Of a DNA stretch of 44,529 nt, positions 29,545 through 42,344 are shown piece after piece. Made by a program: the position numbers and the translations under genes. The notes under the pieces were generated by a model. It worked only from the letters and a program-made list of their open reading frames with translations, had not been told where the DNA came from and ran no database searches. Within the stretch, counting starts at the first letter, position 1. Each line of letters begins with the position of its first letter. Source of the DNA: Agathobaculum butyriciproducens (GTDB taxonomy: Bacteria > Bacillota > Clostridia > Oscillospirales > Butyricicoccaceae); assembly GCA_003096535.1 (NCBI GenBank), contig QEKJ01000022.1, positions 1-44,529 of the forward strand, in the 5' to 3' direction.

Positions 29545-31287
29545 ATGATGGAACAAATTGATAGAACGTTCTGTGATAACGTATTTGATTTTGGAAGTGC
29601 TAATTTATCGAAGAAAAAACTTCGACGTAAGCTCGAACAGCTGATGCCTGAATTTGCGAAATTCGTTGAAAACAGTAATATTCCGGGATACAAGGATAAA
29701 AATTTCCGTATTCTTACAGCTCTTCTGACCGAGCCCAGCAAAAGGGAAGGCTTGAGCACGGATGGGCTTCAGTTTCTCTATATGAGACTTGTTTTGGGGA
29801 CGGAAGAAGATATTACCAAAATTAATATGCGCAGCTATGATGATGAAGCCGACATGAAGTCCTACAGACTGCTGTTGAAAATTCATGATGAAAATGATTA
29901 CCTGTTTCAGGCAATCAGTAATATGGCGCATCTGCTGAGCCGTTCAGAGACGAGCAACAAATGGCATGACTATGAGGATAATGGAAAAGAAAACCTGATA
30001 AAGAAAATTACAGAGGATATCAATAATTGCTATCGACGATTTGATAACGAATTGCTGTACAAAGGCGTGCCTGTAAGGAAGAGAACAGTTTGTAGTAAGA
30101 CAAGGTGCAACGTAGTTTTTTCGACACCTTATATCTACCCTGTACTGCCACTGCTGTTCGTATTAAATGCTATATATAAAGTCAAGGGGGACGGGAATAA
30201 GCACGATAAAGCGGAGCTGCTGAAGTACAATACCTCATGCTCTTTAACAGATAATGTGTATGAAACTTTTGTAATAAGCGAAGCGGCTGAGCACCTTCTG
30301 GAGAGAGTAGAGGATGTGCTGGTAAAACATTTGGTTCTGTATAAAAGAACTGTATTTCCCATTCGAAAAGATTGTTATGAAGATTTTGACTATCAGGAAT
30401 CGAAAAGGAATGAAAGCACTTTGTTCAATCGACGTATAGCGTTTGCGTTTCCTTTTTGCAGGGTGAGAAAACTAGCGGCGGATATCGTAAAGGAATGCTC
30501 TTTGGATGATAGACAAGCAGCAGAACTTACCCGAAATTTGCCAAAGTATCTGCTGAACAAAACATATGGAGAAAGCAAGATTGAGGAGAAGTATGGGAAA
30601 AAGACGCTGGATATTATAAAGGGCTTTCGGATTCTTGCGGATCCGACAACATATTATCAGGATAAAAAACTCACTGAAATTTATAAAGCAGACGTATGGA
30701 GTAAGCTGAAAGTATCCACAAAAAAGATGTTCGTCAATCCGGATGCAGACCTCAAAAATTACCCGGAAAGGCTGTATGGTTTCCTTGGAAAGTATTTCGA
30801 GTATCTTTCTTTGTCGAAATATATTCTCTTTCATTCAGCACCGTATTACCCGCTGTATGGGAAGGAACGGCTGCTGCCTGAACATTACAGAAAGCTGTTT
30901 CATGAGTTTAAAAATAACTGTCGAAAAGATGAATACAAGGATAGAGAAGAAATATTCGAAGATATCAAATGGGAAAACGTTAAGGAAATGCGTCCAAGCC
31001 TGAAAAGTGATATCCTGCGTTCTTTTACGCCCCAGAGCGCTATAGATTATTTGCTTGCTGATCTCGAGCGAAAACCAAACGATGAATCGAATTTACTGCA
31101 GCAGATTAACATATATCTGAGCAAACATACTACGATTGAAAGGTTTCAGAAGGGCAGCAATGCCCTTTGCGCTGTGCATAAGCTGATGCGGAAAACGGCG
31201 GTTAACGTTGTTGGTCATTATGCGGCTGCCATGATTGTATCCTTGCATATTCAGGAACTGCAACGTCGAAATTGTGAAGAGGAGTGA
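29545..31287 (+). CDS. Unrecognised 580-aa protein of the accessory region
   Basis: 580 aa, no signal peptide or clear membrane segment. Charged, Lys/Glu/Asn-rich and visibly richer in A+T than flanking genes, a sign of transfer. Mostly helical by composition; features include FSTPYIYPVLPLLFVLNAIYKVKGD (about 190-215), LFNRRIAFAFPFCRVRKLAADIV (about 290-315) and FTPQSAIDYLLADLE near 495. I find no catalytic motif I can name. AAAGGA lies four bases before the first of two adjacent ATGs, seven before the second (29548). Transcribed away from the recombinase genes. A cargo or defence-type gene is possible, but that is a guess from position only. Confidence 0.75.
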   Translation: MMEQIDRTFCDNVFDFGSANLSKKKLRRKLEQLMPEFAKFVENSNIPGYKDKNFRILTALLTEPSKREGLSTDGLQFLYMRLVLGTEEDITKINMRSYDDEADMKSYRLLLKIHDENDYLFQAISNMAHLLSRSETSNKWHDYEDNGKENLIKKITEDINNCYRRFDNELLYKGVPVRKRTVCSKTRCNVVFSTPYIYPVLPLLFVLNAIYKVKGDGNKHDKAELLKYNTSCSLTDNVYETFVISEAAEHLLERVEDVLVKHLVLYKRTVFPIRKDCYEDFDYQESKRNESTLFNRRIAFAFPFCRVRKLAADIVKECSLDDRQAAELTRNLPKYLLNKTYGESKIEEKYGKKTLDIIKGFRILADPTTYYQDKKLTEIYKADVWSKLKVSTKKMFVNPDADLKNYPERLYGFLGKYFEYLSLSKYILFHSAPYYPLYGKERLLPEHYRKLFHEFKNNCRKDEYKDREEIFEDIKWENVKEMRPSLKSDILRSFTPQSAIDYLLADLERKPNDESNLLQQINIYLSKHTTIERFQKGSNALCAVHKLMRKTAVNVVGHYAAAMIVSLHIQELQRRNCEEE

Positions 31288-35889: not shown

Positions 35890-36471
35890 TTATATGGATT
35901 GGATGCGTTTAAGCGCAAGAGAAGTCTGGGAGCACCTGCGGTAAAATGTGTTTGCCTTCAGTCCTGTCTGTCGCATGGCCTCGGCTGCCGTAATCTCTCC
36001 TGCCCGCCAGCGAGCAACCACTCGCTCGAAATTGTCCGGCAGAGGCATTGGCTTGCGGCCGGTGTATTTACCTTGCTCTTTAGCAATAGCGATGCCCTCG
36101 CGCTGACGCTGGAGGATATACTCGCGCTCAAGCTCCGCGACCGCCGCGAACACGGTGAGCATAAACTTGCCGGTAGGTGTGGTTGTGTCAATAGCCTCTT
36201 TGCGGCTGACAAATTCTACTTGTTTCTCGGTCAGCTGTTTCACGAGATCGAGCAGGTCGCGCGTGTTTCTCGCGAAACGGCTGATTGACTCAATAATCAC
36301 GGTATCGCCGCGCCGGACGTAGTTCATCATGCGGGTAAGCTCCGGGCGGTCCGCGTTTTTGCCGCTCGCCTTGTCGATGAAAACCTCGTCAACACCGAGT
36401 TCGCGCAGTAGAACTTCCTGTCGAGCGGTATTCTGCTCCTCGGTGCTGACACGGATGTAGCCAATTTTCAT
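35890..36471 (-). CDS. Small serine recombinase (resolvase / invertase)
   Basis: 193 aa. Catalytic Ser9 in YIRVSTEEQNTARQ, then SGKNADRPELTRMMNYVRRGDTVIIESISRFARNTRDLLDL and the E helix, ending in a Hin-type helix-turn-helix (GRKPMPLPDNFERVVARWRAGEITAAEAMRQTGLKANTFYRR). A resolvase or DNA invertase; it stands alone, with no transposase or obvious invertible segment nearby. AAAGGAG lies before the ATG. Divergent from the MNT-HEPN gene with only 55 bases between start codons. Confidence 0.93.
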   Translation of the reverse strand: MKIGYIRVSTEEQNTARQEVLLRELGVDEVFIDKASGKNADRPELTRMMNYVRRGDTVIIESISRFARNTRDLLDLVKQLTEKQVEFVSRKEAIDTTTPTGKFMLTVFAAVAELEREYILQRQREGIAIAKEQGKYTGRKPMPLPDNFERVVARWRAGEITAAEAMRQTGLKANTFYRRCSQTSLALKRIQSI

Positions 36472-36493
36472 GGTGTATCTCTCCTTTAAGTAT

Positions 36494-36501
36494 GGTATAA
36501 T
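36494..36501 (+). promoter_or_regulatory. Extended -10 promoter element of the MNT-HEPN gene
   Basis: GG-TATAAT at 36494-36501 with a poor -35. An in-frame ATG at 36500 overlaps this box, which argues for the start at 36527. Confidence 0.4.
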
Positions 36502-36526
36502 GAAAATAATAAGGACGGTGACGCTG

Positions 36527-37189
36527 ATGGATAAGACAATCGAACAGGTAAAACGGTTGGCGCACCGTTATGGAGTGCCGAAACTGGTATTATTCGGTTC
36601 GCGTGCCCGCGGCGATTATCGCGCCCGTAGCGACTACGATTTTGCGGTCTGGGGCTGCACAGCGCAACAGCGTGCGCAATTCAGCGATGCTGTCGAAAAT
36701 GATCTGGACTCGCTGTATTCGGTTGATCTGGTGTTTGTCAGCGAACATACCGATGCCGCATTGCTTGAAAATATAGAAAAGGACGGGATTTGCTTGCTGG
36801 ACCGTTACAATACGAAATTCGAAAATCTCACCAATGCTGTAGAACGCTTGCGTGAAGGCGTGCAGGCGTATCAAGAGAATCCGGCCAAAATCATTCGCGA
36901 TGGTGTAATCCAGCGTTTTGAGTTCACCTGCGAACTGGCGTGGAAAACCACTCGTGAGTTCTTACTTGACCAAGGTTTTACAGAGTTGAACAGTCCGAAA
37001 GCAACGATGCGCAAGGCGTTCTCGTATGGCCTGATTGATGATGAACAGGCGTGGGTTGTATTGCTGAATGCTCGCAACCAAACCTCGCACCTTTATGATG
37101 ATGCAACCGCACAGGAAATTTACTCGCAGATTGAGAGCGAGTTTGTATCGCTGTTTGACAAGCTTATCGAGCAGTTGAAATGCGGTTAA
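36527..37189 (+). CDS. Single-chain MNT nucleotidyltransferase - HEPN protein
   Basis: 220 aa. Residues 1-95: minimal nucleotidyltransferase with GSx10DxD (GSRARGD at 24-30, SDYD at 35-38, third acid D67 in VDLVF). Residues 97-220: HEPN / HI0074-like substrate-binding domain (FEFTCELAWKTTREFL, SPKATMRKAFSYGLI) ending in RNQTSHLY (R183, H188, Y190), the Rx4HxY motif of HepT toxins. In two-gene MntA-HepT systems the nucleotidyltransferase AMPylates that tyrosine and silences the RNase. Here both are fused, with no intervening stop. The start at 36527 follows AAGGA by about 11 bases. Confidence 0.88.
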   Translation: MDKTIEQVKRLAHRYGVPKLVLFGSRARGDYRARSDYDFAVWGCTAQQRAQFSDAVENDLDSLYSVDLVFVSEHTDAALLENIEKDGICLLDRYNTKFENLTNAVERLREGVQAYQENPAKIIRDGVIQRFEFTCELAWKTTREFLLDQGFTELNSPKATMRKAFSYGLIDDEQAWVVLLNARNQTSHLYDDATAQEIYSQIESEFVSLFDKLIEQLKCG

Positions 37190-37206
37190 TTTGAGAATTG
37201 CTTACT

Positions 37207-37380
37207 ATGCCGAATATACAACAGACTAAGATTACCGAAATTCTTAATAACATTGCCATGTCCTGCCGCATGGAAGGACTGGAGATGACCGATGAAATAC
37301 GGGCAATGTGCCTTGCTATCTATAACGGCAGCACAACTTTACAGGATTGCCTGCATAAGATCAATGCGAAATACCTTTGA
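37207..37380 (+). CDS. VbhA-like antitoxin-domain protein, orphan
   Basis: 57 aa. TKITEILNNIAMSCRMEGLEMTDEIRAMCLAIYNGSTTLQDCLHKINAKYL matches the three-helix VbhA antitoxin pattern (S..MEG...T.E.......Y..G..T..D....I..KY). Normally it sits beside a Fic toxin; none is found here. A short gap after the MNT-HEPN gene and a weak ribosome site suggest read-through expression. An antitoxin that outlived its toxin, or a partner for a toxin elsewhere. Confidence 0.55.
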   Translation: MPNIQQTKITEILNNIAMSCRMEGLEMTDEIRAMCLAIYNGSTTLQDCLHKINAKYL

Positions 37381-37388
37381 AACTCATT

Positions 37389-37454
37389 TATGTCAATAGG
37401 ATCGCCGCACATTTTGACATATTTCAAAAGCCCGAAAACGACCCTATTGACATA
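37389..37454. repeat. Inverted repeat around a 42-bp spacer
   Basis: TATGTCAATAGG (37389-37400) and CCTATTGACATA (37443-37454) are perfect inverted copies, extended by TCG/CGA after one mismatch. The spacer contains TTTTGA-CATATT-TCAAAA. Between the VbhA-like gene and the tiny-peptide operon. It could be the terminal repeats of a lost insertion, or an operator. Confidence 0.6.
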
Positions 37455-37495
37455 GTTTTTCGTTGTTTCAGATGGGCATAGCCTAATGACACGCT

Positions 37496-37531
37496 CAAAA
37501 AATACCGGCTCTTGATGAGTCGGTATTTTTG
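37496..37531. terminator. Terminator of the amidoligase / peptide operon
   Basis: AAAATACCGGCTC pairs with GAGTCGGTATTTT around TTGAT (one mismatch). The minus-strand exit is TTTTTT. It lies four bases after the last peptide stop. Confidence 0.85.
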
Positions 37532-37534
37532 TGT

Positions 37535-37609
37535 TCAATCATCGTCGATAAGGTCGGCGAGCAGACCGATGATGGTCAGCGCACCGAGAATGACTTTTCC
37601 TGCGTTCAT
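37535..37609 (-). CDS. Tiny acidic hydrophobic peptide, 24 aa
   Basis: A 24-codon ORF: MNAGKVILGALTIIG, more hydrophobic residues, then a C-terminus ending IDDD. One Lys, four Asp; an amphipathic helix or membrane peptide is likely. GAGG lies seven bases before the ATG. It begins 14 bases after the 28-aa peptide gene and is followed at once by a terminator, so it is the last cistron of the operon. No family recognised; too short for usual annotation. Confidence 0.6.
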   Translation of the reverse strand: MNAGKVILGALTIIGLLADLIDDD

Positions 37610-37623
37610 CTGTTCACCTCACT

Positions 37624-37710
37624 TTAGCTATCCGAAAAGTTTTCGACGGCTTCGATGATAAGATCAACCACCGCGCCTACAGCCTGGAAAATTGGGCCTA
37701 ATGGAATCAT
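37624..37710 (-). CDS. Tiny acidic hydrophobic peptide, 28 aa
   Basis: A 28-codon ORF: MIPLGPIFQAVGAVVDL, then a further helix ending VENFSDS. No Lys or Arg, four acidic residues, one Gln (Q9). AAAGGAGATGCTGCTT-ATG is an excellent ribosome site. It sits 18 bases after the glutamine amidotransferase stop. Like the neighbouring 24-aa peptide it is hydrophobic with an acidic tail, so the two may be paralogous substrates, pore-forming peptides or small membrane partners. Confidence 0.6.
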   Translation of the reverse strand: MIPLGPIFQAVGAVVDLIIEAVENFSDS

Positions 37711-37728
37711 AAGCAGCATCTCCTTTCC

Positions 37729-38667
37729 TTAATACGCGTAAAGTAATTCGCCGGTCATCTCATGGAGCAAGGTCGGGTCGTACAGCATTTCCTCGACTTC
37801 TTCCTCGGAACAGCCATAGTCGAGAAGTGCTTGCACTTCGTCAGCGGTTACGCCGAATGCTTTCGCCACGCTGAATAAATCATCGTAGCTTACAGGCGTG
37901 TCCTCGTAGTAGTTGCGGTAATAAGGATAGTGTCGCCACCAATGTTCGTAGCTGGTTTTCGGTGTAAATGCGCCAGTGGTGATACGGCCTGCTCGGTCGA
38001 TTTTCAAAATTTCACCCTCCTTCGGCTCCAGAATGTCAGAGGGCGCTTTCAGCCGCAGTTTCTTGATGGTCTTACAGAGGATTTCCTGCGTCGAGGCGTA
38101 AATCAGAAAGCCATCATAGAACATCACGCACAGTGGATTGTCCCCGACGACGAACCAGATGGAGTTATCCTTATCCAGAACCGTAAACACAAAAGAACCC
38201 TCGACTGCTTCAGCCATAGATTTCAGGCTGCCGAAGTCGAGGGTCTTGTTTTTCTCTAAAAGCTGCACCGCAACGTAGCTGTCCGTCTCAACGCTCGTCA
38301 TCGGGAGATTTTCTTCCATGCGAAGCTCCTTGTCATTCCAGAGCACGCCGTTATGTGCGAGGGCGAAGCTGTTTCCGTCAACGTGACCAAGGAACGGGTG
38401 GTTATTCTGGTTAAACTGCGCATTACCCTGTGTGGTCATACGCGTATGTCCCATGACCACGTTTACACCGTGCGGAATATGAATCTTCATCTTTCGAGCA
38501 GGCAAAGGACGTTTGTAGATCCGCAGACGGTCATTGAAGTTGTAGGCAATGCCGGTCGCATCCGTGCCGCGCACCTGGCATTCACGCGCTAACGTGTTCA
38601 AAATTTTGTTCTTCGTATGGGTGCTCAGGCACTCCTTAAAGTCGATTAAGCCGAATAAACTGCACAT
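37729..38667 (-). CDS. Class II glutamine amidotransferase (Ntn-type)
   Basis: 312 aa. The N-terminal nucleophile is Cys2 (MCSLFGLIDF), exposed after Met removal. Other family elements: RGTDATGIAY, MGHTRMTTQGN, LAHNGVLWND and TDSYVAVQLL, as in the glutaminase domain of GlmS/PurF. There is no synthase domain; the C-terminal third (about 220-312) is Tyr-rich and ends in acidic helices (YDDLFSVAKAFGVTADEVQALLDYGCSEEEVEEML). It would release ammonia from glutamine, presumably for the amidoligase encoded one base upstream. The target is unknown. Confidence 0.85.
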   Translation of the reverse strand: MCSLFGLIDFKECLSTHTKNKILNTLARECQVRGTDATGIAYNFNDRLRIYKRPLPARKMKIHIPHGVNVVMGHTRMTTQGNAQFNQNNHPFLGHVDGNSFALAHNGVLWNDKELRMEENLPMTSVETDSYVAVQLLEKNKTLDFGSLKSMAEAVEGSFVFTVLDKDNSIWFVVGDNPLCVMFYDGFLIYASTQEILCKTIKKLRLKAPSDILEPKEGEILKIDRAGRITTGAFTPKTSYEHWWRHYPYYRNYYEDTPVSYDDLFSVAKAFGVTADEVQALLDYGCSEEEVEEMLYDPTLLHEMTGELLYAY

Positions 38668-38668
38668 A

Positions 38669-39760
38669 TTACTCCTCCTCCGAAGTGTTTACAGGTTCAT
38701 TAACATAAAGCCGACGCTCTTTCAAATACTGAATAAGCTCCGGCTCGTTGATATCGTCCAGAAAATCAAACCAGCTAAGCTCCTGTACAGCGGTGTCAGA
38801 CATAGAAACAGCCACCTCGACGAGATGGTTGACCATCTGCAAGGTGGCTTTGAGAGTATTCAGTTTGAGCGTGCCGCGGAACATCCGGATTTCAACGGTA
38901 TCTGCGTTCGTGAGATTGACCGCCGTGTAACGTCCGGCACAGGAGTTTTTAGCGTGGCTCATTTGTTCGGACGGCGTAAGGCGAATGCCGTACCGAGCGG
39001 CCCAACGGTTCATCTGGCTCTGTGTGCGGCGGCTGAACCGCAACAGCTCCGCCCAGAATTTTTCGACGAAGTACAGCAGGCGAGCAATCGCGGCCTCCTG
39101 CTGCTCATAAGTGCAGCCAAACGCCAGACGTGAGATATGAACGTGCAGTCCGCAGGTTCCTGCCGCATGGCTGAGGTACCCCATGCTCTGCGCTTTACGC
39201 AACACCTCCGCCCACGGCATTTCGTTCAAATGGTATTCGAGCGTCATTGGATGGGTAACAAGCTCCAAGCCTTCATCCAGACTGCCGTCCGTCTTGATGT
39301 AGAGATTTTCTGCGTCCTTGTTCGCGATGTCGAGCAGCTTCTGCGCATTGCTGTTGACCGTACCGCCGTCGTCGATTTCAAGCTCAACGCCGAAATGACG
39401 CAGACCTTTGCCGTGGAACACGAGGTCGGGCGTGTAATTGTACTCGTGAATAATTTGACAATGCTCATCCCAGCAGGATGCGCAGTAGGCGTTGTCGTCA
39501 TTGTCCCAATACGCGCGGTCACGATGAATAATACGGTTGCAGTCCTCACAGCGGACGTAGTATTCATCAAAGCAGTGGTCGCAAAGCGTGTGCGTGTCAT
39601 CCTCGACGGCATTTTCCTCGTAAACCCGCTCGGCACAGTGGTCACAGATTACGGTCAGGCAATCCGCGCAGTCCTCGCAGAGCCAGTCATTTTCCACTTG
39701 GAACATTTCGTCGATCGGATGCTCCGCACCACAGTTTGCACAAATTCTTGTTTCACTCAT
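38669..39760 (-). CDS. Amidoligase (glutamine-synthetase-like fold) with N-terminal zinc ribbons
   Basis: 363 aa. Residues 1-105 hold about 13 Cys in CxxC pairs (C7/C10, C28/C31, C39/C42, C60/C63, C71/C74, C93/C96), LIM-like zinc knuckles. Residues 120-320 match the putative amidoligase family of glutamine-synthetase-like enzymes: FGVELEI (123-129), KTDGSL (156-161) with GLELVTH, CGLHVHIS (203-210), and AVNL..TVEIRMFRGT. Such enzymes are predicted to join a carboxylate and an amine using ATP. AGGAGG lies before the ATG. Next to the glutamine amidotransferase it suggests an amidation or isopeptide-forming pair. Confidence 0.85.
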   Translation of the reverse strand: MSETRICANCGAEHPIDEMFQVENDWLCEDCADCLTVICDHCAERVYEENAVEDDTHTLCDHCFDEYYVRCEDCNRIIHRDRAYWDNDDNAYCASCWDEHCQIIHEYNYTPDLVFHGKGLRHFGVELEIDDGGTVNSNAQKLLDIANKDAENLYIKTDGSLDEGLELVTHPMTLEYHLNEMPWAEVLRKAQSMGYLSHAAGTCGLHVHISRLAFGCTYEQQEAAIARLLYFVEKFWAELLRFSRRTQSQMNRWAARYGIRLTPSEQMSHAKNSCAGRYTAVNLTNADTVEIRMFRGTLKLNTLKATLQMVNHLVEVAVSMSDTAVQELSWFDFLDDINEPELIQYLKERRLYVNEPVNTSEEE

Positions 39761-39790
39761 TGGTTAGTCCTCCTTTTTGTTTAGTGAATG

Positions 39791-40078
39791 TTAATATTCT
39801 TCAGCAAGCAGCATAGTAGAATGCGTCAAATCGTCGATGATGAACACCTTCGCGTCTACGGCATCGTCACAAGGGACATCAAGCTCGTAACGGTATGTCG
39901 GCTGTTCCTGCTCGTGGACGATGTGTTGGCCAGTCGGTGTTTTCGTCAGCGTGAATACCTGCAGGTAATCTTTTTTCTCGATTTCCATTGTCAGAACCAT
40001 GTGCCACATAAGATGAACAAGCCATGCGGGAATCTCGCTTTCTATCCCGCGCGTCAGAAATTTTTGATCGTCGAACAT
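39791..40078 (-). CDS. DUF960-family protein
   Basis: 95 aa. MFDDQKFLTRGIESEIPAWLVHLMWHMV..DYLQVFTL..HIVHEQEQPTYRYEL is the signature of the DUF960 family (small proteins of phages and integrative elements; function unknown). AAGGAGG precedes the ATG at 40078; longer in-frame starts lack a site. First gene of the operon with the amidoligase, 30 bases upstream of it. Confidence 0.82.
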   Translation of the reverse strand: MFDDQKFLTRGIESEIPAWLVHLMWHMVLTMEIEKKDYLQVFTLTKTPTGQHIVHEQEQPTYRYELDVPCDDAVDAKVFIIDDLTHSTMLLAEEY

Positions 40079-40097
40079 TTTCGCTTCCTCCTTTTTG

Positions 40098-40133
40098 ACA
40101 AAAAGTAAGCTCCTGAGAATATCCCAGGAGCTT
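40098..40133 (-). terminator. Terminator between the AraC gene and the DUF960 operon
   Basis: Perfect 9-bp stem AAGCTCCTG / CAGGAGCTT with a nine-base loop; on the minus strand followed by ACTTTTTG. It ends the AraC transcript and, being only 20 bases before the DUF960 start, could also attenuate that operon. I see no strong separate promoter for the operon; TATTAT near 40141-40146 is possible. Confidence 0.75.
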
Positions 40134-40215
40134 CTACATCTATAATATATGTCCAAAAGTGGCGGAAACACAGAAAAAAACATGGTTCAAGCTATGCTTT
40201 TCTCATATTATTCTG

Positions 40216-41076
40216 TCAATGCGTTGTAATGAATACAGTTTTCCGAAACTGATACGGTGTAAGACCGGTACTTTTCTTAAATGCACGAATCAGATTAGAA
40301 GCAGAGCAAAACGCACAGTCATAAGCAATCTCTTCTATGCTGTCATCCGATTCTGAAAGCTGTAGTTTTGCATAGGATAGCCGCAGATTGAGCAGATACT
40401 CATGCGGCGATAAACCGGTTTCCTCGCGAAATCGGCGAGAAAAGTAGAACCGGCTAAGCGATACCTGCGCAGCAACTTCTTCTATTTGAATATTTTCATG
40501 AAAATGCTCGTCCATCCAGTCCTTTGCCGCCTGTATCTGCGGCGAAACGTTGTGTGCCGCGTGCCCTTGGGTATTCAGCGAGGAAAGTATATGGTGAATG
40601 ACGACCGACATGCGATCGTCTGCATTGGCATCAAGTGGCAGCATCTGCATGATCTTTTGAAAGTCCTTCTCCAAGCCATACTGCTTGCTGAACAGCGCAC
40701 CGTTGTTCTTCCACAGAAGATCGCAGTACGCCTGTGAGGCATTGCCGTGAAAATGAAACCAGCTGAACTGCGCCTCTCTCTTTGTATAGTAGTGGTGCGG
40801 AAAATTGCAGTCGATGAGCACGATATCATCGGCGCTTGCTGTGAATGTCTGATCCCGATATGTGAACTGCATTTCACCCGAATGAATGTAAAACATCAAA
40901 AATGCGTTCAAATGTTTTCTGCGCACGCTGTACGGCGCACTGCAAAGATAACGTGCACCCCAGAGACCATAAAACAGGTGCTGCTGCGCAAAAGCCGAAG
41001 CAGTATGAAAATAGATCCCTTCTTTTTCTATGATACCGGGTTCAAATCGAATAACACCCTGCTGACGAATATCCAT
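40216..41076 (-). CDS. AraC-family regulator, probably of the inositol-type operon
   Basis: 286 aa. N-terminal cupin (about 60-150: NAFLMFYIHSGEMQFTYRDQ, ADDIVLIDCNFPHHYY, FHFHGNASQAY) and C-terminal AraC domain (about 180-282) with IQIEEVAAQVSLSRFYFSRRFREETGLSPHEYLLNLRL and SIEEIAYDCAFCSASNLIRAFKKSTGLTPYQFRK. AGGGGT lies before the ATG at 41076; a GTG at 41121 has no site. Divergent from the Gfo/Idh-iolE operon; overall plan like the AraC protein at 10640. Confidence 0.92.
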   Translation of the reverse strand: MDIRQQGVIRFEPGIIEKEGIYFHTASAFAQQHLFYGLWGARYLCSAPYSVRRKHLNAFLMFYIHSGEMQFTYRDQTFTASADDIVLIDCNFPHHYYTKREAQFSWFHFHGNASQAYCDLLWKNNGALFSKQYGLEKDFQKIMQMLPLDANADDRMSVVIHHILSSLNTQGHAAHNVSPQIQAAKDWMDEHFHENIQIEEVAAQVSLSRFYFSRRFREETGLSPHEYLLNLRLSYAKLQLSESDDSIEEIAYDCAFCSASNLIRAFKKSTGLTPYQFRKTVFITTH

Positions 41077-41124
41077 AACAGCACCCCTAATGTCAGAGCA
41101 AAAATTGCATATTTTGTGCACGCA

Positions 41125-41160
41125 TTACACGTGACAGCTTTCGTCTCTTATGATATCATA
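41125..41160 (+). promoter_or_regulatory. Promoter and palindrome before the Gfo/Idh gene
   Basis: TTACAC (41125-41130), 18-bp spacer, TATGAT (41149-41154). The -10 box is half of a perfect palindrome TATGATATCATA (41149-41160), a possible operator. Confidence 0.5.
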
Positions 41161-41213
41161 GGCACAACAGAAAGGCAAGAAACCTTCCGATCGTTCAAAA
41201 GGAGAAGATACTT

Positions 41214-42344
41214 ATGAGCAAGGAAATTAAAATCGGTCTGATCGGCGCTGGCTGGATGGGCAAGGCTCACACCACCGCATTCCACAACGCACGCATGATC
41301 TTCGGCGATGATATGCCGGTATTTGAGCTGGTAAGCGACGTCAGCGAGGATGCAGTAGCAAAGTTCGCCAAGAACATGGGCTACAACCGCTACACCACCA
41401 ACTGGATGGACGTTGTCACCGATCCCGAAATCGACCTGGTTGACGTTGCAACCCCGAACTGCATGCACTACGAGATGGCAAAGGCTGCTCTGGAGCACGG
41501 CAAGCATGTTTTCTGCGAGAAGCCGCTGTCTCTGTCTGCTGAGCAGTCCCGCGAGCTGGCTGATCTGGCCAAGGGAAAGGGCGTAGTCAACTACTGCGGT
41601 TTCTCCAACATCATGAACCCGGCAAACCAGTACGTTGCAGAGCTCGTCAAGTCCGGCAAGCTGGGCAAGATCATGCGCGTACACGCTACTTACGATCAGG
41701 ATATGCTGCTCGATCCGTCCATTCCGATCGCATGGCGTCACATCAACAAGCTGGCAGGTTCCGGCGCACTCGGCGACCTGTGCAGCCACCTGCTGAGCGT
41801 TTCCCAGATGATCATGGGCGACATGAGCGAGGTGCTCGGCGTGCAGTCCATCGTTATTCCGGAGCGTCCGGTCAAGGCAGGCAGCACTGAGATGGGCAAG
41901 GTTGAGAACGACGACCTCATCACCTTCCTCGTTAAGTATGAAAACGGTGCAATTGGTGACTTCTCGTCCTCCCGTGTTGCAACCGGCCGCAAGAACTACT
42001 TCTATTACGAGATTCAGGGCACCGAGGGCTCGGTAGTATACGATCTGGAGCGCATGTGCGAGGTTCAGGTTTACTTCAAGGCTGACGCAGACAAGGACAA
42101 CGGCCGTGACTGCGGCTTCCGCACCGTACTGCTCAACCCGCAGCACAAGGGCTTCAAGTACTTCCAGCCGGCAGGCGGCATCGCAATCGCATTCGACGAT
42201 ATGAAGACGCTGCAGGCTCACGCACTCATGCAGGCTATGCACGGCGGCGAGTACATCTGCAACTTCGAGATGGGCGCCAAGGTTGACGGCATTATCAACG
42301 CAGTGCTCAAGTCCGTTAAGTCGGGCACTTGGGAAAAGTGCTAA
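41214..42344 (+). CDS. Gfo/Idh/MocA-family oxidoreductase
   Basis: 376 aa. N-terminal Rossmann fold with GLIGAGWMGKAHTTAF (8-23), VDVATPNCMHYEMAKAALEHGKHVFCEKPLS (the EKP motif with catalytic Lys near 104) and the C-terminal barrel with GSGALGDLCSHLL (catalytic D/H) and GAIGDFSSSRVATG. NAD(P)-dependent oxidation of a sugar or cyclitol; beside iolE an inositol or scyllo-inositol dehydrogenase role is likely, unproven. AAGGAG lies before the ATG. First gene of the operon. Confidence 0.9.
   Translation: MSKEIKIGLIGAGWMGKAHTTAFHNARMIFGDDMPVFELVSDVSEDAVAKFAKNMGYNRYTTNWMDVVTDPEIDLVDVATPNCMHYEMAKAALEHGKHVFCEKPLSLSAEQSRELADLAKGKGVVNYCGFSNIMNPANQYVAELVKSGKLGKIMRVHATYDQDMLLDPSIPIAWRHINKLAGSGALGDLCSHLLSVSQMIMGDMSEVLGVQSIVIPERPVKAGSTEMGKVENDDLITFLVKYENGAIGDFSSSRVATGRKNYFYYEIQGTEGSVVYDLERMCEVQVYFKADADKDNGRDCGFRTVLLNPQHKGFKYFQPAGGIAIAFDDMKTLQAHALMQAMHGGEYICNFEMGAKVDGIINAVLKSVKSGTWEKC

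What the first reader, a model, noticed from the sequence alone, without database searches (positions are those of the whole stretch)
37535..40078. Compact operon of DUF960, Zn-ribbon amidoligase, class II glutamine amidotransferase and two tiny acidic peptides
Five consecutive minus-strand cistrons with spacings of 30, 1, 18 and 13 bases end in a terminator. The two last ORFs (28 and 24 codons) have excellent ribosome sites and similar build: a hydrophobic, probably helical body with an acidic C-terminus. Amidoligases of the glutamine-synthetase-like fold and class II amidotransferases have been predicted by comparative genomics to work together in forming amides or isopeptide bonds. Tiny peptides made in the same operon are natural candidates for the substrate: amidation, crosslinking or tagging of Asp/Glu/C-terminal carboxylates. 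If so, this would be a peptide-modification system that normal annotation misses because the peptides are too short.
Basis: partly seen in the sequence, partly recalled or inferred. Interest (0 to 1): 0.85.

Follow-up and report, generated by a model that had tools for sequence, protein, structure and literature searches.

The report
Amidation enzymes with tiny partner peptides
A bacterial gene cassette makes two enzymes that should attach ammonia to carboxyl groups, together with one or two conserved peptides of only about 22 to 36 residues that were found only beside these enzymes, so the peptides are probably the enzymes' substrate or a small working part of them.

Summary
On the minus strand, DUF960, a Cys-rich amidoligase, a class II glutamine amidotransferase (GAT) and two tiny ORFs follow one another and end in a terminator-like hairpin. 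The tiny ORFs are real genes. In a tree of 63 distinct GATs, the 28-row clade holding the window has a short hydrophobic ORF after GAT in 28 of 28: 27 of the window's two families (A, B), one of another sequence. The frames are under purifying selection. A peptide profile run over 87 whole genomes gave 30 significant places, all behind a GAT, no orphan. More distant GATs carry other short peptides in 8 of 35 rows.

So the peptides go with the amidoligase-GAT pair. What they do is not shown. I rank substrate of glutamine-dependent amidation slightly ahead of a small helical subunit or membrane tether; a free-standing toxin is unlikely. The enzyme pair is known or predicted; in the paper listings seen (some capped) I met no account of the peptides.

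The parts
40107..40149 (-). promoter-like TATATTATAG followed at once by a 12-pair hairpin and a T run, between the AraC-type gene and DUF960: operon leader, possibly an attenuator
   Evidence: one search lists the hairpin as terminator-like (7 such sites in 36500-41500 against 5.8, sd 2.5, in shuffles, so the number alone means nothing); a hairpin at the same place in 12 of 12 leaders folded, with stems of different sequence; 2 further leaders (L036, L052) lack it; the loose pattern occurs at 5 other places of the genome
39791..40078 (-). DUF960 protein, 95 aa
   Evidence: PF06124, 81.2 bits; the ORF cluster of DUF960 is in 16 of 35 loci compared
38669..39760 (-). amidoligase, 363 aa: N-terminal Cys-rich (LIM/zinc-ribbon-like) part and glutamine-synthetase-like ligase domain
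   Evidence: PF12224 29.9 bits; 12 invariant Cys in the first 100 residues of 18 homologs plus invariant E126, E128, K156, D158, H206, H208, R244, E290, R292; Foldseek to YbdK, GS, GmaS, Dop/PafA and LIM proteins; weak LIM matches at 37-102
37729..38667 (-). class II glutamine amidotransferase, 312 aa, Cys2, with C-terminal helices
   Evidence: GATase_6; invariant C2, GHTR, N106-G107, D129 in 24 rows; PurF/GlmS glutaminase domains
37624..37710 (-). peptide A, MIPLGPIFQAVGAVVDLIIEAVENFSDS, 28 aa
   Evidence: identical in protein to own-genome copy L035 although 12 of 87 bases differ; profile hit E 7.2e-10
37535..37609 (-). peptide B, MNAGKVILGALTIIGLLADLIDDD, 24 aa
   Evidence: 7 synonymous and 1 amino-acid change against L035 after the first codon; profile hit E 3.4e-6
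37497..37527 (-). terminator-like hairpin AATACCG..CGGTATT with T run
   Evidence: read, folded; not listed by the scan
37381..37499 (.). res-like inverted-repeat region (TATGTCAATAGGGTCG ... CGATCCTATTGACATA) next to the cassette
   Evidence: fold -42.6 kcal/mol; by eye, similar repeats follow GAT in L039, L044, L050, L054, L057, L150-L153, L157, L169

Best explanation
The cassette is a glutamine-dependent amidation module with its own dedicated micropeptides. Inferred working: GAT hydrolyses glutamine and hands ammonia to the amidoligase, which activates a carboxylate with ATP and turns it into an amide. The operon's last product, a probably helical peptide of about 22-36 residues, is made next to GAT and serves only this pair. 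Of the two ways that can be, I hold it slightly more likely that the peptide is the carboxylate substrate (Asp/Glu side chains in or behind the helix, or the C-terminus) than that it is a small helical subunit or membrane tether. Amidation would remove negative charge and so change its membrane or partner binding. Shown: the genes, their conservation, purifying selection, and genomic dependence on GAT. Inferred: enzyme chemistry, from family and conserved residues. Not shown: any contact with or modification of the peptide.
For: 28 of 28 distinct GATs of the clade (support 100/98) are followed by a short peptide (16 B, 9 A, 2 A+B, 1 unrelated). All 30 significant profile places in 87 genomes lie behind a GAT; they fall in 16 of the 18 genomes with a GAT hit and in 0 of the 69 others. 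pN/pS is 0.03-0.32 in the groups tested, and the selected frame is the peptide frame even where no ATG/GTG/TTG exists (0.12 against 1.85 and 4.5 in the other frames). Motif residues of both enzymes are invariant. Peptide type changes 4 times on the tree of the clade (states A, B, A+B, other), and own-genome copy L036 has a GAT 90% identical but an unrelated 32-aa peptide: exchangeable cargo suits a substrate better than a tightly fitted subunit. The fold is that of ligases acting on carboxylates, more weakly also Pup ligase/depupylase.
Against: No invariant column in 20 aligned A and B peptides; the L185, L187 and L036 peptides lack the mid-helix acidic pair seen in others (sequences). Most family A tails are basic or neutral. 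27 of 63 GAT rows have no peptide, so the pair must work on something else there. The peptide lies behind GAT in every case seen, which also fits a subunit. A read-through GAT+A model showed a helix but no confident place for it (block pLDDT 48-64), which says little either way.
Confidence: 0.42

Rival explanations
1. The peptides are small helical subunits, regulators or membrane tethers of GAT/amidoligase (as small subunits are in other amidotransferases, recalled), and the real substrate is elsewhere, for instance a cell-wall or host molecule.
For: The peptide gene follows GAT in every case seen, mostly with gaps of about 5-35 bases or an overlap (L163, L172, L177); no orphans; amphipathic cores: the hydrophobic moment is reached by fewer than 5% of shuffles in 10 of 18 peptides; enzymes without the peptide exist, as for an optional accessory.
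Against: Nearly identical GATs (90%) with unrelated peptides (L036); A and B exchange within the clade; no confident docking in the one model made; 8 of 18 peptides are not significantly amphipathic.
Confidence: 0.35
2. The peptides are membrane-active effectors (toxin-like, as in type I toxins) whose activity the amidoligase-GAT pair switches on or off.
For: Size and hydrophobic body are like those of small membrane toxins (resemblance recalled, not tested); a nucleotidyltransferase/HEPN toxin-antitoxin-like gene and a resolvase lie next door.
Against: No orphan copies in 87 genomes, unlike free-standing toxins; no family hit in Pfam or NCBIfam; antisense RNA not testable here.
Confidence: 0.15
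3. The tiny ORFs are spurious.
For: They are very short; 7 of 14 rows of the second clade and 20 of the 21 rows outside both clades have none.
Against: 28 of 28 clade members, purifying selection confined to the peptide frame, genomic linkage.
Confidence: 0.02

Closest known systems
Amidoligase_2 (PF12224) plus class II GATase pairs in phages and mobile elements (predicted by Iyer et al. 2009: recalled, and seen only as cited in passages of PMC11318856 and PMC10580990 and in the reference list of PMC7824862)
   Same: Same two enzyme families side by side; same predicted chemistry
   Different: Here a Cys-rich N-terminus, DUF960 upstream and conserved micropeptides after GAT; the passages I saw do not mention such peptides
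Pup ligase/depupylase (PafA, Dop) and Pup
   Same: Glutamine-synthetase-like fold (Foldseek: Dop E 1.7e-3, PafA E 1.8e-2) and a small dedicated protein partner (recalled)
   Different: No peptide read ends in GGE or GGQ; peptides of about 22-36 aa; a GAT as partner; no sequence-family match
MurT-GatD (amidation of peptidoglycan glutamate; PMC3267633 and PMC5871853, search listing only)
   Same: Ligase plus glutaminase making an amide from a carboxylate
   Different: Other enzyme families (recalled); no micropeptide known to me
Graspetides and other ribosomal modified peptides (PMC8939145, search listing only)
   Same: Short peptide encoded with an amide-forming ligase
   Different: No ATP-grasp match among the window's operon proteins
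LUZ24-like phage UFV-P2 (PMC3890496, passages)
   Same: Amidoligase and GAT near each other, with small ORFs of 72 and 34 aa behind GAT
   Different: Those ORFs are listed as hypothetical proteins and were not compared here

Membership tests
Amidoligase_2 (PF12224), glutamine-synthetase-like ligases | profile match above the curated cut-off | tested here: met
   29.9 bits, cut-off 22
Amidoligase_2 (PF12224), glutamine-synthetase-like ligases | fold and conserved acidic/His/Arg positions of the superfamily | tested here: met
   (YbdK E 1.2e-4, GS, GmaS; 5 matches with E up to 0.001), though TM-scores are low (about 0.26-0.38); invariant residues; their catalytic roles are recalled
Amidoligase_2 (PF12224), glutamine-synthetase-like ligases | ATP-dependent amide formation | not testable with these tools
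   no biochemistry
Class II glutamine amidotransferase | Cys at position 2 and conserved glutaminase motifs | tested here: met
   C2, GHTR, N106-G107, D129 invariant in 24 of 24 aligned rows
Class II glutamine amidotransferase | PurF/GlmS-type Ntn fold | tested here: met
   E 2.7e-10 by sequence profile; E 3e-14
Pup ligase system | Pup-like partner ending in GGE or GGQ (feature recalled) | tested here: not met
   none of the A, B or other peptides read ends so
Pup ligase system | sequence membership of the ligase in the PafA/Dop family | tested here: not met
   no such family among Pfam or NCBIfam hits at E up to 0.1
Graspetide-type peptide modification | ATP-grasp ligase in the operon | tested here: not met
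   none among the family hits of the window's five operon products; other loci were not annotated by family
Type I toxin-antitoxin | free-standing toxin peptide with antisense RNA | tested here: inconclusive
   no orphan peptides; no Rfam match in 37000-41500; antisense RNA not testable

The most novel reading that the evidence does not exclude
A new kind of ribosomal peptide modification: a mobile, glutamine-fed amidoligase module that amidates or crosslinks its own 22-36-residue helical peptides (or attaches them to targets, as the fold-related Pup ligase does), with the peptides exchanged between modules like cartridges and one lineage starting them at AUC/AUU codons.
Probability: 0.27. Interest if true: 0.87.

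Novelty: new variant of a known kind. Interest (0 to 1): 0.62.

Why it matters
Amidoligase-GAT pairs occur in phages and mobile elements, and their substrate is an open question. A strictly linked, conserved and testable micropeptide gives a concrete candidate substrate or subunit, and it shows that genes below the usual length limit can be the missing part of an annotated system.

Tried and rejected
Free-standing toxin: no orphan peptide in 87 genomes. One common origin of families A, B and the distant peptides: looked suggestive by eye, but cross-profile scores were weak and not clearly above shuffles, so I do not claim it; likeness of the L036 peptide to the L188 type failed the shuffle control (58 of 200 shuffles as good). 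A GAT C-terminal extension as marker of the peptide: true in the window's clade, but peptide-bearing GATs of the second clade lack it and some extended GATs have no peptide, so dropped. Docking of peptide A on GAT by a read-through fusion: no confident contact. Plasmids: 12 records, all under 60% identity and none covering 80% of GAT. Sequence search of solved structures gave no ligase relative of the amidoligase, only weak matches, mostly of its Cys-rich part. The C. difficile phage gene after its amidoligase (L067) is not a GAT by eye. Rfam: no match. The leader pattern is not specific to the cassette.

Rows left out of the tree of 63: truncated or broken GATs (L040, L055, L060, L062, L072, L162, L164, L165, L173, L191), GATs over 345 aa (L076, L077, L103), weak matches (L088, L102, L130), identical GATs counted once, and late loci L196, L206, L209 (no peptide seen). 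L210 was not examined downstream; L199, L200, L202-L204, L207 and L208 come from contigs already examined.

Full report
What is there. The minus strand carries, from 40078 down to 37535, DUF960 (95 aa), an amidoligase with a Cys-rich N-terminus (363 aa), a class II glutamine amidotransferase (GAT, 312 aa), peptide A (28 aa) and peptide B (24 aa), with gaps of 30, 1, 18 and 14 bases. Families were assigned by Pfam; the two peptides match nothing in Pfam or NCBIfam. A hairpin with a T run closes the operon at about 37527-37497. At the other end a promoter-like TATATTATAG is followed at once by a strong hairpin with a T run before DUF960.

Are the tiny ORFs genes? Homologous loci were collected in the order (19 of 245 genomes by amidoligase), the family (18 of 87 by GAT at E up to 1e-30), the class (15 of 391 at 1e-50), the phylum (3 of 398 at 1e-40) and in viral contigs. 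I read the stretch after GAT in the loci listed. A tree of 63 distinct GATs (labels of duplicate loci corrected; labels are mine from that reading) has a 28-row clade with the window, support 100/98. In it 28 of 28 GATs are followed by a short hydrophobic ORF: 16 of family B, 9 of family A, 2 with both, and one (own-genome copy L036, tree row L166) with an unrelated 32-aa peptide. In two loci of one genome a 95-aa ORF stands between GAT and B. A second clade of 14 rows has other short peptides in 7; of the remaining 21 rows one has a doubtful candidate (L181). So 27 of 63 rows have none.

Selection. Between the window and own-genome copy L035, peptide A is identical in protein although 12 of 87 bases of the ORF (stop included) differ; B has 7 synonymous and 1 amino-acid change (the script's pathway averaging prints one nonsynonymous step for A, although the two peptides are identical). 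The 35 bases after B are identical and the res-like region is 94% identical, so the DNA is not specially frozen at the ORFs; it is the protein that is kept. The other groups give pN/pS of 0.04 to 0.32. In six distinct loci of the same genus the A frame has no ATG, GTG or TTG; at the expected start, 3-5 bases after the ribosome site, stands ATC or ATT. There the peptide frame has pN/pS 0.12, the other two frames 1.85 and 4.5. A rare start codon, or a frameshift from an ATG/GTG in another frame, would both explain it; I cannot decide.

Dependence on the enzymes. A profile of 20 A and B peptides (A4) run over 87 whole genomes gave 30 places with E up to 1.5e-5 in 16 genomes, and then nothing better than 0.06. 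Compared by hand with the GAT places, all 30 lie downstream of a GAT: 26 directly behind it, 2 as second peptide behind A, 2 after the 95-aa ORF. Two GAT genomes have no significant hit: in G138 the GAT breaks off near residue 88 into what looks by eye like an integrase gene (L040), and G273 has only a distant partial GAT. Since the profile was built from members of these loci, finding known copies is no surprise; the absence of orphans is the informative part, within the reach of a short profile and the tool's first look.

What the enzymes are. The amidoligase has twelve invariant cysteines in its first 100 residues and invariant acidic, His and Arg positions in the ligase part over 18 homologs. 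Its model (mean pLDDT 86.5) matches YbdK, glutamine synthetases, GmaS and, more weakly, the Pup enzymes Dop and PafA, besides LIM proteins; the TM-scores are low, so this is a superfamily statement. GAT keeps Cys2 and the glutaminase motifs in 24 of 24 aligned rows and matches PurF and GlmS. That such pairs make amides from carboxylates with ammonia from glutamine follows from the families; it was not measured.

How it may work. Three readings survive: substrate, subunit or tether, membrane effector. For the substrate: exchangeability of peptides between near-identical enzymes, acidic residues in most peptides, fold kinship with ligases that act on a small protein. For the subunit: the place behind GAT in every case seen, tight coupling, the amphipathic build (10 of 18 peptides with a hydrophobic moment that under 5% of shuffles reach; 8 of 18 not). 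For the effector: physical likeness only. Peptide-free enzymes in 27 rows mean that the pair can do without this peptide, which weighs against a peptide as the only substrate. A read-through model of GAT with A gave a helix (324-346) without a confident place. I therefore give 0.42, 0.35 and 0.15, the rest open.

Mobility. The window stretch 37284-40201 is 85.5% identical to a copy on contig C20 of the same genome; the resolvase and nucleotidyltransferase part lies next to it in the window but about 6.9 kb away in C20. In the C16 copy the similarity (79.9%) ends within ten bases after the GAT stop codon, just where the peptide is replaced. An ORF of the cluster that holds the window's resolvase is in 17 of 35 loci compared, and res-like inverted repeats follow many cassettes (by eye). 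That the cassette is mobile is inferred from this.

Literature. The paper that predicted amidoligase-GAT systems (Iyer et al. 2009) is not held; I know it by recall and by citation. Passages of PMC11318856 and PMC10580990 report the idea that phage amidoligase and GAT modify the cell wall against superinfection; passages of PMC3890496 list a phage with amidoligase, GAT and small ORFs. The listings showed no paper on micropeptides linked to this pair; some searches listed only 15 of 33, 10 of 37 and 10 of 1,074 papers, and most subscription journals are not in that library.

Noticed in passing
window 40149-40107 and leaders of L035, L038, L039, L040, L042, L044-L049: Promoter-like TATAnTATA-type box followed after a few bases by a strong hairpin and T-rich stretch in front of DUF960; the stem differs in sequence (GAAGCC..GGCTT, GAACCC..GGGTT) but forms in all 12 leaders folded; L036 and L052 lack it. 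Possibly an attenuator. The loose pattern also occurs at 5 other places of the genome, one of them with a strong hairpin.
   Followed up: partly
L039, L150, L151, L152, L153, L168: Peptide A frame is conserved but has no ATG/GTG/TTG; ATC or ATT stands at the expected start.
   Followed up: partly
window 35890-37500: Small serine resolvase, res-like inverted repeats and a fused nucleotidyltransferase-HEPN-like ORF (TIGR01987) next to the cassette; related ORF clusters occur in other loci.
   Followed up: partly
L040 (G138): GAT gene breaks off near residue 88 into what looks by eye like an integrase gene.
   Followed up: no
own genome contigs C16, C20, C10: Two further full copies of the amidoligase and a decayed one; the C16 copy has an extra short Cys-rich match upstream and another peptide after GAT.
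   Followed up: partly
L041, L043: A 95-aa ORF of unknown kind between GAT and peptide B in one genome.
   Followed up: no
L179, ending about 110 bases upstream of the amidoligase match: SD-led hydrophobic ORF of 40 aa (51 aa from an earlier start) in a locus without a peptide after GAT; might be a relocated partner.
   Followed up: no
window 29545-31284, + strand: 580-aa ORF without any Pfam match at E up to 0.1.
   Followed up: no
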